From Glutinoglossum americanum (taxonomy: Eukaryota; Ascomycota; Geoglossomycetes; Geoglossales; Geoglossaceae): DNA of 64,000 bases. The notes under the pieces were generated by a model. The model was not told the DNA's origin. It saw only the letters and a program-made list of their open reading frames with translations, and did not search any database. This document shows, in pieces, positions 35,610-47,355 of the stretch. The stretch covers positions 1 to 64,000 of the forward strand of contig JAGHQL010000093.1 of assembly GCA_020080175.1 (NCBI GenBank). Direction: 5' to 3'. The first letter of the stretch is position 1, and every line of letters begins with the position of its first letter. The translations under genes were made by a program, and so were the position numbers.

Positions 35610-36727
35610 CACCGGAAGTTGTTTGGCACGTCACCCCCAACATATAGTCTCCGTTCCACAGGAGTTCACAGTCGAAGTGCAGCCCGGAAGAATGCACACC
35701 AGGAGTGCATATTGGAGGGGTGTACATACACTAGAGAAAACAGGTCAAATTTGTTTCTCTCTTCCACAATTCCCACGATCTTGAGCGCAATCAACTTCTT
35801 CATAATAAACAAATAAACAATAACCTACCGGTCTTTAAATCCACTCTTATCCGCAAATTCTATAATATTAAACCACTCAAAGTGTAATTCCCCTAAAGTA
35901 CATACAATGCAGCTATACTCATCAGCACTTTGATTGATCACTAGTACTCCAAATTACGCTCTAGCGATTGCCTTCAGCCCTAATTCATCCACGTAATCAA
36001 TGGCTCCAATAAATCTTGCATATGTATCTAAACTAATCATGTAGAGTCTATTAAACAAATAACTGAAGAGCTTTTCATATCTTACACTATTTCCTAGAGC
36101 CAGGTATCTGTGCGAGATTTGCGCATGAAGGTAATCAACATCTCAATAAGTTTCCTCTCGTCTGCGGTTCGCTCAGGGGCTGCTGCGTACGCACGCAGTT
36201 CCTTGTGGTAATGAAACAGTGTATGGTAGGGATGTGGGATGGCTATGATCTTTAATTTAAAAGTATAACTACATGACCCCATTGAGCCAACGTCAATCGC
36301 GAAGCGTACATTTCAAATTGAACTGAAAGTGAACTGTTTGGAGTCAGCTTAATTGAGAGTCTAGCAACATGACGCTTCCCATTTATGTTGCCTTTGACGC
36401 AATGTGACTGAAGTTGACTTCTTCGTACCTTGGAAAGGATGGCAGCACTCTGCTGGTTGCCTTAGTTAGAACTCAAGGCTTGATGCATGATACTTGGGCT
36501 CTTGAAGCGTCCACTCGTTGAACTCGTGGGCCAAGCCCACCGCAAAACGCCACAGGCGCCTTGGTAGAGTCATGCCGAGCACAAAGGATTTGGGCAAGAG
36601 GCGGGGTCAGCCTGTCGGACACAAAGTACAGAGGATAGTGAAGAATTCCCAGTTTAACTCTCAAGATTATCGCCACGGCTCAATCTATTAAGCACATGAT
36701 CTTTCATCGCCACTCTACTGTGAGATA
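35610..36727. other. Intergenic, small frames only
   Basis: The minus-strand frame 36094..36282 (with HYHKELRAYAAAPERTADER) has a coding look but no identifiable domain, and may be a remnant. The rest shows nothing. The last few hundred bases should contain the promoter of the patatin multidomain gene. Confidence 0.35.
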
Positions 36728-39700
36728 ATGACTTCTCCAGTCCCCAATCCCATGGTATGCGTCAAATGTGGTAAGGCTGCGAACTACCACTGCCACCCTT
36801 GCGATGACCCTTACTGCTCCAGTTGTCAAGTTGACCACTGTGATCGTCACGCAAACCGAGGCATCCCCTACGAAATCTATCAACAAGTAGAAGCAGTGCT
36901 TGCTACAGAACAAGATGAATCACTACGACGCCAAATGCATGACTGTGACTCTTTGGCACGGTGGATCGGCATCACCATGCCAGACAACATAGGCAACGCA
37001 CAACCAAGTCTCTGGGGCTATTCACGAATAGCAGACCTTCTGACTGGCAACCACGTTCCGGAAATACAGTATCCCAGCCTCGTATCGTTCATCGGTGGTA
37101 CTGGGACTGGGAAAAGTACCTTGATAAGAAGCCTCATCCGCTTCAGCTGTCAGAATACGCCGACTCCCGGTATGGAACCGATAATCTCGGATCCTAAAAC
37201 ACCACACAGGTCAACAAGCAGTGATGTGCATCTATACAGCGATCCTGGCACCGAACACGAAGAGCGCCCGCTGCTACTAGCAGACTCGGAAGGGCTTCGT
37301 GGAGGACCGCCTGAAGCATGGCCTAGGTGGCTCGGCAAGGACGAGGTCGGTGGGGCTGTCGTGACCACAATTAATAACAAGAGAACAATTACATGGGCCC
37401 AAAACGAGAAGGCGGATAGGATGTACATCGTAGAGCATCTGTATCCAAGATTTTTATACACCTTCTCTGACCTGATTTGCTTCGTGGCTTCCACAGCACG
37501 GTATGTGAAGTTGCGACATCCCTAGATCCCTGGTGCATAGTGACTTACAATGGCGGCGTTTAAGTGAAATCGAAAGAGATACCGTTGATCTCTTGGAATG
37601 GGCGTCGTTGGGCTATGAAAAGACGCTCAACCAAAGAACGCCGCCAGCACTGCTAGTTGTGATAAATAATGCCGTGGGGCTAGAGGATCGGTCCTGGTAT
37701 GATGTGAACGAAGCTACACGAAAGTGGCTCACTCGACTTGACGAATCCGTTGATCCGGCACGTAATATAACGTTTTCAAAGTATGAAGAACTTAAGAACA
37801 AGTGGTCTCGTCAGGGCACAGAAATTTCTAAGCCTTCTCAGCTGCTGTTGCACTATTACTCGGACTTCAAGGTAGTGTGTATCCCAAGCAGTTCGGCCAA
37901 ATTGCAAACACACGGCGATATCTACTTGCAATATCAGAAGCTGCACGACGAGATCAGAACCTTGGCTTTGCTAACAGCTAAGAAAAAGGAAGAAGCGAAT
38001 CTAATTCTGGACACGACTACTTTCCAGATGTATGTCCAGCAAGCTCTGAACCACTTTGCCGAAGAGCATGGGAAGCCATTCGACCTTGAGGAGGTCTCGG
38101 GAAACATGAGGCCAGTACCAAACAAATTCAAGAACCATGTAGTTAATGTCCTTCTACATATGAGAGATAAGATCGGAATCGATAAGGAAAGGGTTTTGCT
38201 GGAACGGATGGCTCCCCTGGTAGCAGCCACAGTGGCGTTCTCAGCCAGCCAGAGCGGAAAAGACACAGGTCTGCAACCAGTATGACTTGGTTATTGCAAA
38301 ACTGACTAAAAGACAGACGTTCAGACTCACTTCGACCGAGTCTTTGCCCGATGTTGTGTAGAGGCTTGTGATAAATTTTATCAAGAGCACTGGCGATGTG
38401 AACAGTCTCTGAACAACAAACGCTGCAAAAATGTCAAAGGGGGTCACACAAAGGGGCACCAATACGTACACAACCCAAAGGAAGGCAGTGGAATCTGGAT
38501 ATGTAGTGGCGAATTCACCGCATCATACGATCCGTCGTTGTTCACCAAACTTGTTGTTGAACACCTTCGATCTCTGACTATATATAATACTGAAATTCAC
38601 AGACAGACACTACAGCAAGCACTTATAAAGGACTGGGTGTGCAAAATCCACACCAACAGAACCTGTCTTTCCTGCTTATCCAACAATCCCGAGCATCTAT
38701 TGCCTTGCAGACATGTTTTGTGCAGCGCTTGCGCAACAAAGTTCGATCTCGGCAGCGGAAGAAATGAGCATTCAGTCAGCATATGCATAACAAGGTGTCC
38801 GTTTGGGTGCGTTTCACATGGACCAGAGTGGCCTTGGGTATCTTTCGTGAAGCCACCTTCGGCCGGCGTGCGGGTACTTACCCTCGACGGAGGTGGAGTC
38901 CGTGGTATCCTGGAGCTCATCGTGCTTAGGTACTTGCAGGATTATGTTGCAGTTGAACTTGGTGCATATGTTCCCGTCATTGACATGTTTGACTTGGTGG
39001 TGGGAACTAGTACCGGAGGAATCATAGCTCTAGGCCTCGCCCATTGCCTCTGGGATATCCCAGGTTCCATAGTCAAGTTCACTCATCTTGCCAGCAAAAT
39101 CTTCACTCCACGCCCCCCAGGAACTCAACGGCTTTACCGATATTTAATCGGTCACAAATATCGGACGAGCGTGGTTGAAAACGCGTACAGAAACCTCTTT
39201 CCTAAGGATGGACCGCTGGTCAGTAGTCAAAGGGCCTCGCCTATCAAAGTTGCGGTAACAGCAGTATCCGATATAAGCGGTTCATACAGGCCATATTTAA
39301 TAACCAATTATAGTCGACCATTCGTCCGTATGTAATTCTTAATCCCGGAGAGTTCCCTTCTGACAATGCTCGCAGATTCTAAGGAGTGGCTGGTCAGGCC
39401 TGATACCTATGAACAGGAGGTGAAGGTCTGGGAGGCGTGAGTATCTATTCCTACATCAGCAGAAGTTCCACTCTCATGGGAATACGCATAACAGAGCACG
39501 CGCGACCTCAGCAGCTCCAACGTTCTTCAAGCCATACACACACGATGCCACTGGCGTCGTCTATAAAGACGGAGCCCTAAAATGCAACAACCCTATCCGC
39601 ATCGCCGATTCTGAGCGACGCTCAATCTGGCGATCCGGAAGCAACTCCCTTGATCTCCATCTCTCGATCGGCACCGGCGTCAATCCGGAGCTCGGAGGCG

Positions 39701-40344
39701 CAGTTCAGAGCTACGACCGCCGCAGCAGAACCGGCATTGGAGTGCTTATCGACATTGCCACAGACGCAGTCAAAAGCACAATGGACTCAGAGTCCGAATA
39801 CGAATCGTTCCGGCGGGACCTTCATGACGAAGAAATCCGCAAGCGCTACCACCGCTTCAACGTCTGTATCAACGATGGACAGCCCACACCGTCCTTTGAC
39901 GACTGCAGACACATCCAACGCTTAAAAGATTTAGCTAAGAAGCATTGTGAAAGCAAGGATATAGAACCGCAGCTTCGGCAACTGGCCAGAATTCTCGTCA
40001 GCTCCACTTTCTACTACGAAAAGAAAAGCTGGCACAGATTACCGAGACACTGGGTGTGTCAAGGAGCCATACATTCGAGGCTAACAGCTGAGCGGCAGAA
40101 AGCATTGAGCGCATTGGTGACAAAAGGGGTGAGTTTTATGGTGGGAACTGAGAGCCCCCCAAATGCTGGCGGAGAACCCAAGTTCGAGACCGCGACTACC
40201 GTATCGGCTTCCGTTACTCCATGGCCTATGCCGCTAGAATTTGCGGTATCAGAGGCGTCGAAAGATAGAAGGATCTGTATTGACCTGATATTCCCAGACG
40301 GACTCCACTGTGCAATAAGTGGCTTTCCGAGGACCATCGCGTAG
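36728..40344 (+). CDS. Zinc finger-GTPase-RING-patatin multidomain protein
   Basis: Predicted join(36728..37500, 37565..38268, 38317..39327, 39376..39436, 39495..40344), 1132 aa. Four introns (48-64 bp) have good donors and acceptors and keep phase. Order: a B-box-like Cys/His finger (C11, C14, C22, C25, C30, C33, H37, C38, H41); a P-loop NTPase with Walker A GGTGTGKST (123-131) and a DSEG switch/Walker B (186-189), like dynamin/septin-type GTPase folds; a long helical region; a Cys/His-rich stretch and a RING-like C3HC4 finger (about 609-657); then a patatin domain with DGGGVRG oxyanion motif (about 683), GTSTGG nucleophile elbow (Ser near 724) and catalytic Asp in DGA (near 875). The dyad is intact, so lipid acyl hydrolase activity is expected. 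This plan recurs in fungi among NLR-like/patatin proteins. A role in self/non-self or membrane-damage response is inference. Confidence 0.9.
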
Positions 40345-42411: not shown

Positions 42412-43787
42412 CTAAGTCAGATACTCGGTCCTCCCGTCCGCGTATGTATACTTAGTGCCTCCAAAAAAATCATACCGCATCTTCGCAGTCGCCTGATCCA
42501 CGCTGGCCGTCGCTCGCGCGTACTGCGCGGTCTCATTCTGACTCCTCGCCACAATAGCCGCCTGGACTTCCTCATTTCTCCGCTGCGCGTCTGGGTCCGG
42601 AGTCTCCGGGAACGCGGTACGAGGGATCGTTCGTGGAAGTGGCGAGAGGCCATCTGTGGGGTTCAGTAGTGCTGTGTGAGAGAGGAGCGTCTGGAAGCTG
42701 GCGTGTTGAGCGGAGGGATCGCACTGGATTTTGAGGGTTTGGAAGGCGATGAAGCCGTTGAGGGTAAGGAGGGGCGTCTGGGTTTTGGGGAGGAAGGAGT
42801 TTAGAGAGGGGGTGGAGTGAGTGGCCCGAGGAGCGCTGGTATAGGGGAAGGAGTAGGCTTGATAAACAAGAGCGAACTGCTGATCGATGAAGCCGGCACC
42901 GAGGCCGGTCATTGCGGCGGCAGATTGGAAGATCCCGTCTGTCTCGTTCATTAGCACGCGAAGTTAACAACGCTCCGACGACCGGATCCTGATGCCTTTT
43001 GCGAGCGGTCCGCCCGTTTCTCAAAAGCGGCTTACATACATAAATTTTTCTCGGGGCTAACGCCACACATCTCCGCCGCCTGTCCCATCTTTTCGGGAGA
43101 CAACCCTCCCTGGCAGGGCGGCGCAACGGTACGATCAAGGAGATTGTAGAATGCCGTCGCGAGCGTAATGAAGCTTGGAGAAGGCCTCTTGTCAGCCGCG
43201 ATCATTTCGCCCCAGAATTCGGCCGGGTCGGGAGCAGGGGGTGCATGCTGCTGTCGTTGTGGCATTGGCTGTTGTGGCGCTGGCTGTTGTTCCGCTGGCT
43301 GTTGCACCGGCTGCTGTGTCACTGGATGTTGTTGCACTGGCTGTTGTGGCAGTGGCTGTTGTGGCAGTGGCTGCTGTGGCAGTGGCTGCTGTGGCAGTGA
43401 CTGTTGTGGCAGTTGCGGTGGGACTAGGGCAGGTGGAGGAGGGTAGTACTGCGGCTGTTGCTGTGGCGGTGGGGCCTGGGTAGGTGGGGGAGGGTAGAAC
43501 TGCGGCTGCTGCGCTGAGTACTGGTGTGCGATCGGGCCAGGCGGCTGCCATTGGTTTGGCGATTGCTGCGGTGCCGGCAGGGGCGCAGACGGTGGTGCTC
43601 CGTATAAACTCGCTGTCGCTGCGCTTTGTGCCAGATACTGCGGAGGGCATGCGCCCTGCGGAAATGGCGAATAGGGCTGACTAGCGTGGTGACCAGGAGG
43701 AGGGACACCGTATCCAGTGGTGGTGGGGCTCAATTGTGGAGGGTATTGTCCAAACAGGGGAGCGCCATAGCTTCCGGAGACGCTATA

Positions 43788-43833
<46 letters not shown>

Positions 43834-43901
43834 GGGTGTGTGTTCTGACTGGACTTGTTAGCGGCTCTTTCGAGGATCTTTCCGAGAAAGTGAGCGGCCA
43901 T
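42412..43901 (-). CDS. Gln/Pro-rich protein, DUF7514-like C-terminal part
   Basis: Predicted complement(join(42412..42938, 43040..43901)), 462 aa; the 101-bp intron has donor GTATGT and acceptor GACAG and keeps phase. A short N-terminal helix (MAAHFLGKILERAA) is followed by 15 consecutive Gln (about 24-38), then a long Pro/Gln/Tyr-rich disordered region with about ten PQQPLPQQP-type repeats (about 165-235). The folded part starts near 245 (FWGEMIAADKRPSPSFITLA, LSPEKMGQAAEMCGVSPEKN). This resembles fungal DUF7514 proteins, but the match is from memory of the motif and is tentative. Function unknown; polyQ/prion-like composition suggests condensate or transcription-related behaviour. The gene is divergent from the Helo-pseudokinase gene, sharing a ~780-bp intergenic region. 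Confidence 0.7.
43788..43833 (-). repeat. CAG/CAA repeat encoding polyglutamine
   Basis: A (CTG/TTG)n tract on the plus strand encodes the 15-Gln run of the Gln/Pro-rich protein. One half is pure CTG, which tends to vary in length between strains; the other half mixes CTG and TTG. Confidence 0.85.
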
Positions 43902-44683
43902 CTCTCTTCGCTATGTAGAACTGGGACTGGAGAAAGGCGAGGCCTCTCCAGGATGGTATTTGAAGTTTGACTGGCATGTCACTAGAGCCTCCTGTGGGGA
44001 GTCCACCGCGGGGCGTGTCTTGGCGGCGCTGAAAAGGAATATATTCATACGGAATCTTCCATAGCTTGTTGCGTGCTTTTTCCACCTCGGCGAAGCAGAT
44101 TCTTCCATCCCGAGCCTTTCCTCTACATGGCGCGCATAGGGAAGCAAGAGAACAACGCGCGAAGTCGATGTGTGCATTTCCAGATGCGAGGTGAAGGCGA
44201 GAGGGTCCTACATCAAGTACTAGGGCTAAGGGTCATGTTCTTGCCCAACATTAAAAATTCTCCAATACTTTTTGGCTTACCTGCATGATATGAAAGTATT
44301 CGAAGCCGCGAGTCCTGCGCTTTTTTTTGGTCGTATGCGATACGACCTCGTCCGAATAATGCCGCACCATTGTTGGCCATTGTTGGCCATTGTTGGCCAT
44401 TGTTGGCCATTGTTGCCTAGAGATACACCACCATGCGGGAATTGTTTGTCCGATTCGGCAGCAAATTAAGCCAAACCGGACAAAACGCTTCCGACTGCAG
44501 AGTCCATTTGTTTTGCGAGGTGTTTACGGAGTATGCCTCACGGCCTGCCAATCTTCGCACGCTTTGCTTAGCAGACGGCAAGACTGAAGGAGACGCAAAC
44601 CTTCAGTTACTCTTGGAGGAATTTCTTGGATAATATCACCTCTCTTCTCGTGGTTCTAGGTAGCATGACTGCACGATTTCGCT
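43902..44683. promoter_or_regulatory. Divergent intergenic region
   Basis: This lies between the start codons of the Gln/Pro-rich gene (minus) and the Helo-pseudokinase gene (plus), so both promoters are expected here. It contains the 10-bp minisatellite at 44367..44415. No known transcription factor site is called. Confidence 0.45.
44367..44415 (+). repeat. Minisatellite CCATTGTTGG x ~5
   Basis: Four perfect copies and one nearly complete copy of the 10-mer CCATTGTTGG lie head to tail. Each copy contains CCATTGTT; the repeated unit sits about 270 bp upstream of the Helo-pseudokinase ATG and could affect its promoter. Confidence 0.9.
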
Positions 44684-47355
44684 ATGGATCCTTTAAGTGT
44701 CGCAGCATCGGTTGTCGGTTTACTTATTGCAGCAGGCAAGATGGCTCAATCGCTGAAGCAGTTGACCTCTTTGGCTGATGCGCCAAGTTCAGCAAAAGCT
44801 GTGCTTACAGAGATGAGCGACATGGCAGCAGCACTAGAACACCTTCAGGACTATCTAAATGGAACAACCAGCGTACCTGCCGGCCGTGGACAATTTATCC
44901 TGCTTGAACACGTAGTTGTAACTCTAACTGGATGCGTCACCACATACTCGGAACTCGAGTTAATCATCGACAGCGTTCACGTTGATCCTGAAATGGGTGC
45001 CTTCGACCGTATTAAGTGGGCCGTTAAAGAAAAGGAGATCCTGGACATTGTTCGGCGGATACAGAACCACAAATCTTCCCTCACATTAATGCTGACAATA
45101 TTGCAATGGTACGTTCGACCAACAGTTAATAGTCACCAACTTTATTCTCGAAAACGATTTAACATCGCCCTAGTAAATCAAATCAAGAGGCTGAAAACTC
45201 TATGGCGAGATTATGTAGTCTTATAGAGCGGGTCGCAAGAAGCAATGAGAATCTCTCATCGCGCCTTCACAGGCTAGAAGGGAGACAACTCTCACCCGAT
45301 GCTGGAAATCCACCAAGCGTCCTGGGAGATGACAGCTCTACGATTCGTCCAGCAATAAATAATCGGACAGACCAAGTATCTATTACTGCCGCGACCCGCT
45401 CGGTTAGATTCTCCTTCGAGGAAACTTTACAATCATCCCGGGTCTACTTAAGATCCATGTTCCGCCACTCAGAATCATCCCTATCCAGCTCCGTACAGCG
45501 AGCTGCTGCCATTTCCATGTTCTCATCGCTGAGTCTCGCAGATGTATCCAACATCTCAGTATTCTCACTGCCGATATACGCTATTGATATCAGCAATAGC
45601 TACTGGTATACATTTGATCTAGGTGGGACGCAGCAAAACTCCCAGCTACAGGAAGTTCAATCACTCTCAGGGGACCGAGAAGTGGCGGCTTCTGTCAAGG
45701 CTCTCACCAGGGAAACGACAACTGTCGGTGTTCCTCCTGTGGACGTATGGTGGGTCGAGCAGAGGATAGAGGCGACAGTCACTCGGGATTTTGTGTTTGC
45801 TAACCTACAGGAGGAGGAGCAGAAGTTCCTAGATGAGCCGCTGGTGTTTGGAGGCGGGCTTACAGACGATACGTATATTGAATGGATCTTGAAGAAGGCC
45901 AAACGAATATTTCTTATACTGAAGGAGTTGGGTGTAACAGATCGGATTCGCCTTATTGCTGATGACTCCTGGGACGACAGCGACCTTCCACTTCCCTTAG
46001 AGGCCATTAAGCGCCTTCAGCTTACCTACAGTAGAGATGGAGCCTTGGAGAAGAGATTTTATAAGATGCAGTTCAAATTCCTCTTACAAGAGATTAAAGA
46101 AGGGGAGCATATCGTATTTGGAACCGATGAATTTATCCCCATTGAACCTGTCAACAAGCGTTCAGGGTTCACATTTGACTACACTGCTGAAAAAGTACAT
46201 CTACCTGGGCGGCCAGGCGAAATTTACAAGCGGAGACGAATTGTCCTCAGTGGTGCTCCCGACAAAGCTCCAGAAGAGGACTTCATTGCCAAGATACAAG
46301 TAATGAAGTCCGCGGTACACCCGCACATCGCCCCGTGGGCTTCTTACACATACCGGGGGTATGGATACATACTTCTAAAGTCGGTGAGCGATGTCAGTCT
46401 GAAGGATTTTATCCGGTTTACCCCTCAGCAGTTCAAGATTCTCCGGGAGCGGGAGCGGCAGTTAACCTTATTAACTTGGCTACACTGTCTTGCGAACGCG
46501 TTGGCATTCCTCTACCGACATGGCTTAACCCATGAAAATATCAAGCCTTCAAACATTATGATCGATGAGTCAAATAACATATTCTTTACAGACATTTTGG
46601 CGTTTAAGTGGGGAGACGCCGATAAGGAGGCCTCTGGGATTGAATCGTACGAATATGGAGCCCCGGAGAGATGGGGCCGGACATGGGTTATCTCCAAACC
46701 AAGCCTCACAAAACACCGTTCTGGTGGGGAAGCTTCGTGGAAAAGGAATTCGGATACTTCAACTTCTAGTGGCCCTTCGATATCTACGAATACCTACTCC
46801 TCCAATCCCCCGACCGAGCCTTCAGTCGTCTATATCGACTGGCAAAATAACACTCCCGATTTCCAAAAATCAGATGTGTTCTCCCTCGGCTGTATCTGGC
46901 TAGATATTATGACCATCCTCCTCAAGCGAAAGAGCACCTCCTTCTCCTCCCATCGATCCGCTAAGAACAAGAAGCCTGGTATAGGCGGAGGCCTTCCAGA
47001 CATGTCTTTCCATGCAAATATCGGCCAACTGGAGTCATGGATAGGATTACTCAAGAGAGACGCATCGAAGAAAGAAGATAGGATCTTCCGCTTTGTGCCT
47101 TCCATCCTCGCCCTCACACAATCCATGCTCTCAAGAGACCCGAATATTCGTCCTAGGCCGCACGAGTGTGAGGAACTCCTCCACCGGGTACTAGCTAGTG
47201 CCCTGTTCCCTGAGATAACACACTGCGACACTCAACAGTTGGCCGAGGGCGATTGGGAGTTTGGCAGTCCGTCGTCAGCTGAGGGTTCGGACACCATATC
47301 AACACCGAGACAGTCTGCAGTGTCCAGCTTTATTACAAAGCGTCTCTTTGTGTGA
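44684..47355 (+). CDS. Helo-like N-terminal domain fused to pseudokinase
   Basis: Predicted join(44684..45108, 45219..47355), 853 aa; the 110-bp intron (GTACGT donor, TTATGTAG acceptor) is the only junction that keeps phase. Residues 1 to about 140 (MDPLSVAASVVGLLIAAGKM and on) match the Helo-like N-terminal domain of fungal STAND proteins, a helical bundle related to HeLo and the MLKL four-helix domain. A Ser-rich linker and an uncharacterised middle part follow. From about residue 445 comes a kinase fold: 'DF..KI..MK...HPHI' alphaC region where the usual Glu is Lys, HENIKPSN at about 580 in place of HRDxKPxN (catalytic Asp lost), TDILAF in place of DFG, YGAPERW, and KSDVFSLGCI. Loss of catalytic residues indicates a pseudokinase. 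Likely a membrane-acting cell-death or signalling protein; that is inference from architecture. Confidence 0.85.

What the first reader, a model, noticed from the sequence alone, without database searches (positions are those of the whole stretch)
44684..47355. MLKL-like layout: Helo-like bundle plus pseudokinase
The N-terminus matches the Helo-like domain of fungal STAND proteins, and the C-terminal half keeps kinase landmarks (APE, the D in KSDVFSLG) but has HEN instead of HRD, Lys at the alphaC Glu position and an altered DFG. A membrane-active helical bundle joined to a pseudokinase is the plan of animal and plant MLKL necroptosis executors, and HeLo-type bundles are related to the MLKL bundle. 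If the pseudokinase acts as a switch for the bundle, this would be a fungal counterpart. Helo/HeLo-kinase fusions exist in fungi, so novelty lies in whether this one is a dead kinase that triggers death.
Basis: partly seen in the sequence, partly recalled or inferred. Interest (0 to 1): 0.8.

Follow-up and report, generated by a model that had tools for sequence, protein, structure and literature searches.

The report
Fungal HeLo-like protein with dead kinase
A fungal gene joins a suspected cell-killing helical bundle to a kinase domain that has lost most of its catalytic residues, a layout like the animal cell-death protein MLKL; the layout has been mentioned for fungi before, but this one looks like a separate assembly, and the same genome holds other such proteins encoded next to working-looking kinases.

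Summary
Observation confirmed. Window 44684-47355 (+) is a two-exon gene for an 868-residue protein: HeLo-like domain (PF17111, residues 1-178, only 0.1 bit over cut-off), a conserved linker motif, and a kinase domain with APE and the F-helix Asp but Arg for the beta3 Lys, Lys for the alphaC Glu, HEN for HRD and DIL for DFG. Of 24 relatives in the same genome, those with sequence at the position keep Lys (22/22), Glu (22/22), HxD Asp (23/23): very probably a pseudokinase. The MLKL mechanism is plausible but not shown: structure models were too weak, and no partner kinase was found in the window. The N-module recurs in four other genes with other C-termini (ubiquitin-like, ankyrin, live-looking kinase, unknown), and the pseudokinase has a relative without a detectable HeLo-like part, so the gene looks like a shuffled fusion. 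A 2025 review already mentions HELL-kinase/pseudokinase proteins. Followed further: another HeLo-pseudokinase kind (PF14479/DUF7580) in this genome has a live-looking kinase gene head-to-head at 7 of 14 loci (7 of 23 with nine more DUF7580 loci; under 0.5 expected), reminiscent of RIPK3 and MLKL.

The parts
44684..45108 (+). Exon 1: residues 1-141 and part of 142; the four modelled helices of the HeLo-like domain, with a hydrophobic first helix
45109..45173 (+). Intron, 65 bases, GTACGT...CCCTAG
   Evidence: same break point in the C306, C74 and C310 genes, no intron in C286 (by eye)
45174..47355 (+). Exon 2: end of residue 142 to 868 and stop
45184..45282 (+). Residues 146-178, last part of the PF17111 match; helical by eye, not modelled; possible brace-like helix
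45400..45579 (+). Residues about 218-277: linker motif (SRVY ... SLADVSNISVFSLPIY) shared with the four other genes that carry this N-module (in C310 only its second half)
45739..46164 (+). Residues about 331-472: region before the kinase lobe; homology to the paralogue C259 begins here (residue 328)
46165..47166 (+). Residues 473-806: pseudokinase domain
46165..46197 (+). Place of the Gly-rich loop (GFTFDYTAEKV): no GxGxxG
   Evidence: by eye
46225..46245 (+). beta3 strand YKRRRIV: Arg 496 where 22 of 22 covered relatives have Lys
46279..46305 (+). alphaC DFIAKIQVM: Lys 515 where 22 of 22 covered relatives have Glu
46531..46557 (+). Catalytic loop HENIKPSNI (HRD to HEN; Lys 599 and Asn 602 kept)
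46588..46605 (+). TDILAF: DFG to DIL (Asp 615 kept)
46657..46674 (+). GAPERW: APE motif
46867..46890 (+). KSDVFSLG: F-helix Asp

Best explanation
A HeLo-like effector module (N-terminal helical bundle with a hydrophobic first helix) fused to a pseudokinase that acts as its regulatory or sensing part. Most likely course: at rest the protein is held inactive; when the pseudokinase is phosphorylated by another kinase, or binds a ligand or nucleotide, the protein oligomerises and the bundle goes to a membrane, giving a regulated-cell-death or incompatibility-type reaction. Shown: gene, domain order, loss of catalytic residues, the N-module reused with other C-termini. Inferred: membrane activity, switching, trigger, cell death.
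For: PF17111 match and clear relation to 14 HeLo-like domains of the same genome. Hydrophobic first helix: residues 3-21 are the most hydrophobic 19-residue stretch of the protein, and in 13 of the 15 aligned domains the most hydrophobic 15-residue stretch lies in the first 30 residues. Four helices modelled. Degenerate kinase against 24 relatives. Purifying selection: pN 0.22 against pS 0.72 over 477 codons with the C259 paralogue; dN 0.222, dS 1.53 for the bundle with C286 (dS near saturation). The N-module is joined to other C-termini, as an effector with changing regulators would be. HeLo/HELL domains are described as membrane-targeting cell-death domains related to the MLKL bundle (PMC12881547, PMC10197012, PMC9815663; passages read).
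Against: PF17111 passes its cut-off by 0.1 bit, and the genome-wide PF17111 search did not list this exon. No significant structural or sequence match to MLKL or HET-S was seen (capped lists of 50 of 699 and 60 of 217). The bundle model is of low confidence and the kinase model useless (pLDDT 33.6). No second kinase was found in the 64-kb window. About 150 residues, in part low-complexity by eye, separate bundle and kinase, unlike the two-helix brace of MLKL (recalled). Pfam names PF17111 after a pigment-cluster protein, and HeLo-like domains were listed as of unknown function in 2014 (PMC4986451, passages read).
Confidence: 0.42

Rival explanations
1. Integrated decoy or bait: the pseudokinase mimics a kinase that microbial or non-self factors attack, and its disturbance fires the HeLo-like module; it is a sensor, not a phospho-switch.
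For: Pseudokinase under purifying selection; kinase domains in fungal NLRs have been proposed as integrated decoys (PMC12258605, passages read); the same N-module carries other possible sensor parts, ankyrin and ubiquitin-like.
Against: No guarded kinase identified: apart from C259 the matches in the genome are 24-42% identical over parts of the domain; no NACHT or NB-ARC in the protein.
Confidence: 0.25
2. Non-death scaffold: a helical oligomerisation domain plus a pseudokinase in ordinary signalling or secondary-metabolism control.
For: PF17111 is borderline here and widespread (24 matches in this genome, 18 over the cut-off); the function of most PF17111 proteins is unknown (recalled).
Against: Hydrophobic N-terminal helix and the published link of HeLo-like domains to the MLKL/HeLo superfamily (PMC9815663, passages read).
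Confidence: 0.22
3. An atypical but active kinase that works without the usual residues.
For: DFG Asp 615, Lys 599 and Asn 602 are kept; kinases without a Gly-loop can be active (start of the abstract of PMC6442604 in the listing).
Against: beta3 Lys, alphaC Glu and catalytic Asp are all replaced, and GxGxxG is absent.
Confidence: 0.06
4. Artefact: two neighbouring genes joined by a wrong gene model, or a decaying pseudogene.
For: No transcript evidence is available; the closest homologues of the two halves lie at different loci.
Against: One open frame of 730 codons runs from the end of the HeLo-like domain through the linker motif to the kinase end; the only break is a canonical intron at a position shared with relatives; low pN/pS.
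Confidence: 0.05

Closest known systems
HELL-kinase/pseudokinase proteins of fungi, as mentioned in PMC12881547 (figure legend, passage read)
   Same: HeLo-like (HELL) domain in one protein with a kinase or pseudokinase domain, likened there to MLKL
   Different: The passages read give no sequence or mechanism; whether its examples belong to this lineage cannot be told
HeLo (PF14479) + DUF7580 (PF24476) proteins of the same genome
   Same: HeLo-type N-terminus and a degenerate kinase domain (HKS, HKN or HKE for HRD in eight of eight examined)
   Different: Neither Pfam family is reported for the window protein at E up to 1; no phmmer match of its kinase part to the eight; several have a neighbouring live-looking kinase, for this one none was found
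Animal MLKL and plant MLKL
   Same: Order: N-terminal bundle, then pseudokinase
   Different: No sequence or structural match obtained; long linker; no RIPK3-like partner known
Wheat Pm13 (PMC10951266, passages read)
   Same: HeLo/MLKL_NTD plus C-terminal kinase
   Different: Pm13 keeps the kinase residues; in this it resembles the C310 gene of this genome rather than the window gene
HET-S / HELLP
   Same: HeLo or HELL bundle as presumed effector
   Different: Those are controlled through C-terminal amyloid motifs (PMC9815663, PMC12881547, passages read); here a pseudokinase takes that place; amyloid motifs were looked for by eye only

Membership tests
HeLo-like / PF17111 | Pfam profile match over the curated cut-off | tested here: met
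   27.3 bits against 27.2, residues 1-178, but not listed in the exon-wise genome search; identity to relatives of the same module 68-71% (C286), 46-47% (C306), 42% (C310), 41% (C74)
HeLo-like / MLKL-bundle superfamily | Four-helix bundle fold matching HeLo or MLKL | tested here: inconclusive
   Four helices 3-30, 35-58, 68-98, 106-141 at pLDDT 67.6; Foldseek against PDB: 0 of 699 matches at E 0.001 or better, no MLKL or HET-S among the 50 shown; profile against PDB: best hits are coiled coils, the plant CC domain MLA10 at E 0.006 among them, no MLKL or HET-S in the 60 of 217 shown
Pseudokinase | Protein-kinase domain by sequence | tested here: met
   PF00069 E 4.8e-14
Pseudokinase | Loss of catalytic residues | tested here: met
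   beta3 Lys, alphaC Glu, HRD Asp, DFG Phe and Gly replaced; DFG Asp kept
Pseudokinase | No phosphotransfer | not testable with these tools
   needs an assay
MLKL | Bundle - two-helix brace - pseudokinase order (recalled) | tested here: inconclusive
   bundle and pseudokinase are in this order; whether a brace exists was not modelled, and the linker is about 150 residues
MLKL | Pseudokinase homologous to MLKL | tested here: inconclusive
   560 PDB sequences matched at E up to 1, best BRSK2; only 60 shown, none MLKL
MLKL | Activated by an upstream RIPK3-like kinase | not testable with these tools
   no kinase neighbour found in the window
MLKL | Membrane permeabilisation | not testable with these tools
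   needs an experiment
HeLo-DUF7580 proteins | PF14479 and PF24476 | tested here: not met
   neither reported at E up to 1; no phmmer hit
Fungal NLR (STAND) | NACHT or NB-ARC domain | tested here: not met

The most novel reading that the evidence does not exclude
This fungus holds two-gene modules that work like RIPK3 and MLKL: a HeLo-pseudokinase executor (PF14479/DUF7580 kind) and a neighbouring, mostly head-to-head, live kinase, in several cases with ankyrin, Sel1 or WD40 parts behind it as possible sensors. The window gene is a second, independently assembled executor of the same plan (HeLo-like module + another pseudokinase lineage), whose activating kinase is encoded elsewhere, for instance the HeLo-like protein with a live-looking kinase on C310.
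Probability: 0.25. Interest if true: 0.88.

Novelty: new variant of a known kind. Interest (0 to 1): 0.58.

Why it matters
If the pseudokinase gates the bundle, the MLKL plan was assembled more than once in fungi, and even twice in one genome. The gene pairs of HeLo-pseudokinase and live-looking kinase would give a direct, genetically simple test of whether fungi have a kinase-to-pseudokinase death switch; in the reviews whose passages I read, the fungal side of the comparison is told mainly through amyloid-triggered HeLo proteins.

Tried and rejected
Structure: the kinase part (residues 350-827) folded alone gave pLDDT 33.6 and was not used. The second look with VIA-align was not available. 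A profile of 15 HeLo-like domains against PDB gave mainly coiled coils (viral spike regions and the like); the plant CC domains MLA10 and MLA13 appear (E 0.006, 0.12), but in such company this counts for little. A search of the genome with the linker-motif alignment was not possible. Relatives in other fungi could not be searched: the window's genome has no relatives held, and the other collections are of bacteria, archaea, viruses, plasmids and metagenomes. A kinase neighbour for the window gene was sought with ten kinase queries (tblastn, E 0.01): hits in the window lie in this gene only, one of them in its linker; the four queries of the DUF7580-neighbour kinase type found nothing, not even this gene's own kinase part, so sensitivity is limited, and the remaining 38.8 kb of the contig were not so searched. 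The PF00069 list of the genome (123 of 239 candidates scored) has no entry on this contig, but it also misses the window gene itself. Considered and dropped: NLR (no NACHT), HeLo-DUF7580 member (no match), SltB-type pseudokinase (seen in a listing, not compared).

Limits of the pair result: 14 loci are what remains of the 19 rows after joining rows of one gene. Three of the seven head-to-head pairs (C300 twice, C176) and the convergent C250 were seen before the test was framed, and C176 supplied both queries; leaving the three out, 4 of 11 remain. Nine further DUF7580 loci that one search did not find have no listed kinase head-to-head within 4 kb, which gives 7 of 23; the kinase lists are incomplete. 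Convergent neighbours: C250 (3.9 kb) and C80 (1.5 kb); C310 also has a second kinase on its other side. Of the eight pseudokinase proteins examined, HeLo PF14479 is over its cut-off in 4 (C300a, C300b, C176, C250), under it in C8 and not found in C263, C111 and the C310 candidate exon; DUF7580 is over its cut-off in 6, under it in C111 and C8. The C111 kinase is of another type; the C8 kinase reads WGD for HRD and lacks APE; the C310 kinase lies in several frames, with a stop inside the match, so introns or decay. Kinase N-lobes of C263, C8 and C310 were not checked.

Full report
Gene and protein. The window lies on contig C311 of a 25.8-Mb genome in 317 contigs, taken as fungal from its gene content. 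At 44684-47355 (+) there is one gene of two exons. Of the GT/AG pairs tried around the frame change (45080-45300, introns of about 40-160 bases), 45109-45173 has the best-looking splice signals and restores a sequence typical of the family. In the related gene on C286 the same stretch is uninterrupted, and in the genes on C306, C74 and C310 the frame breaks at the same point (by eye). The product has 868 residues.

Domains. Pfam reports PF17111 at residues 1-178 (27.3 bits, cut-off 27.2), SesA below its cut-off (16.2 against 26.3) and Pkinase at 509-641, profile positions 42-168 (E 4.8e-14). The N-lobe with Gly-loop and beta3 is not recognised. NACHT, NB-ARC, PF14479 and DUF7580 are not reported. 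The borderline PF17111 score is a weak point: the genome search with that family, 24 matches, does not list this exon. The assignment rests more on relatives: the window's domain is 68-71% identical to C286, 46-47% to C306, 42% to C310 and 41% to C74, and in an iterated profile search all 14 loci given to it matched over most of the domain (they were chosen from earlier PF17111 and protein searches, so this is not independent).

Kinase residues. The kinase part was compared with relatives in the loci fetched from the same genome. Of 34 matching open frames nine duplicates or fragments were dropped, leaving the C259 paralogue and 24 others. Those with sequence at the position keep the usual residue: beta3 Lys 22 of 22, alphaC Glu 22 of 22, HxD Asp 23 of 23, catalytic Asn 23 of 23, DFG Asp 21 of 21, DFG Gly 20 of 21. 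The window has R496, K515, N597, N602 (kept), D615 (kept), L617; C259 has R, E, D, T, D, G at these places. Both lack GxGxxG by eye, both have Arg for the beta3 Lys and Ile for the DFG Phe; they differ in the rest. Between them pN is 0.222 and pS 0.716 over 477 codons: the protein sequence is conserved although catalysis is most likely lost. With dS about 2.3 the ratio is rough.

Origin. Homology to C259 begins near residue 328; nothing of the HeLo-like part is found in the roughly 4 kb held upstream of that kinase, and the genome search with this domain lists nothing on that contig. The N-module recurs with its linker motif around SLADVSNISVFSLPI (eight invariant columns in five sequences) and other C-termini: ubiquitin-like on C286 (PF00240 E 5.7e-10), ankyrin repeats on C74, a kinase with VALKK, HGDVRSDN and DFG on C310 (PF00069 E 2.2e-27 and 1.7e-19 for two pieces), and no recognised domain in the part of C306 examined. 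So the window protein looks like one product of module exchange. Which state is ancestral cannot be told.

Fold. A single-sequence AlphaFold2 model of residues 1-142 gives four helices, mean pLDDT 67.6; the other four models are at 42-46. Foldseek found no PDB match at E 0.001 or better. This neither supports nor refutes a relation to the MLKL bundle. The kinase model failed. The relation of HeLo-like domains to MLKL is taken from print (PMC9815663 and PMC12881547, passages read).

Known before. [quoted passage not shown] So the plan is not new. Ten searches of the held open-access library showed in their listings no paper that, by title or abstract start, describes this protein or kinase-paired HeLo-pseudokinases. 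Several listings were cut (25 of 91, 20 of 38, 20 of 114, 15 of 39, 15 of 7,135, the last being uninformative); DUF7580 occurs in no paper held. Most subscription papers and all bioRxiv preprints are outside that library. I read passages of six papers: PMC12881547, PMC10197012, PMC9815663, PMC4986451, PMC12258605, PMC10951266.

Side result. The same genome has another HeLo-pseudokinase kind: DUF7580 (15 matches, 14 over cut-off), in part with PF14479 HeLo in front. Eight such proteins examined all have HKS, HKN or HKE in place of HRD. In an inventory with one of them (C176; 14 loci) and with its neighbour kinase (30 rows), a kinase lies head-to-head within 4 kb at seven loci: C176, C300 (two), C263, C111, C8, C310; at C250 and C80 it is convergent. 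With the nine DUF7580 loci that one search did not find, it is 7 of 23. Fetched DNA shows both partners at the seven loci and at C250, with Pfam support of varying strength as told under Tried and rejected. All eight kinases keep the catalytic Asp and DFG (the His is Trp in C8). With 30, 131 or 250 kinase loci placed at random, 0.03, 0.14 or 0.27 such pairs are expected among 14 loci and 0.05, 0.23 or 0.45 among 23; the estimate assumes uniform placement and was framed after three of the seven pairs had been seen. In the open frames behind the kinases of C250 and C263 are ankyrin repeats, behind that of C300b a Sel1 repeat just under its cut-off, and in the C111 frame WD40. For the window gene no such neighbour was found; its own head-to-head neighbour matches DUF7514.

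Judgement. It is filed as a variant of a kind already mentioned, not as a member of the MLKL family.

Noticed in passing
L072 (C176:8800-13000), L060 and L062 (C300), L076 (C263), L077 (C111), L078 (C8), L074+L079 (C310), L073 (C250): HeLo-type/DUF7580 pseudokinase genes beside a live-looking kinase gene: head-to-head at seven of 14 loci (seven of 23 with all DUF7580 loci), convergent at C250 and C80; some kinases followed by ankyrin, Sel1-like or WD40 parts.
   Followed up: partly
L041 (C286:4830 onwards): HeLo-like module, 68-71% identical to the window's, fused to a ubiquitin-like domain (PF00240) in one open frame.
   Followed up: partly
L044 (C310:46368 onwards): HeLo-like module fused to a live-looking protein kinase (VALKK, HGDVRSDN, DFG), the reverse case of the window gene.
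   Followed up: partly
C310:34000-48300 (L074, L079, L044): A live-looking kinase, a DUF7580 pseudokinase, a second kinase in broken frames and the HeLo-like kinase fusion within about 14 kb.
   Followed up: partly
L002 and L063 (C80:53324-56300): PF17111 domain, followed by ankyrin-like repeats (by eye), head-to-head with a kinase-ankyrin gene (HHDLKPENI); the latter is convergent with a DUF7580-type pseudokinase at C80:57231-57952.
   Followed up: partly
window 36692-40344 (+): Patatin-like phospholipase (PF01734) behind a region with weak P-loop and B-box matches below cut-off, about 4 kb from the gene; patatin is another effector domain named for fungal NLRs.
   Followed up: partly
window 42412-43910 (-): DUF7514 (PF24355) gene with a Gln-rich frame upstream of it, head-to-head with the finding.
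   Followed up: no
window 44370-44415: Short tandem repeat of the unit TTGTTGGCCA upstream of the gene (seen by eye).
   Followed up: no
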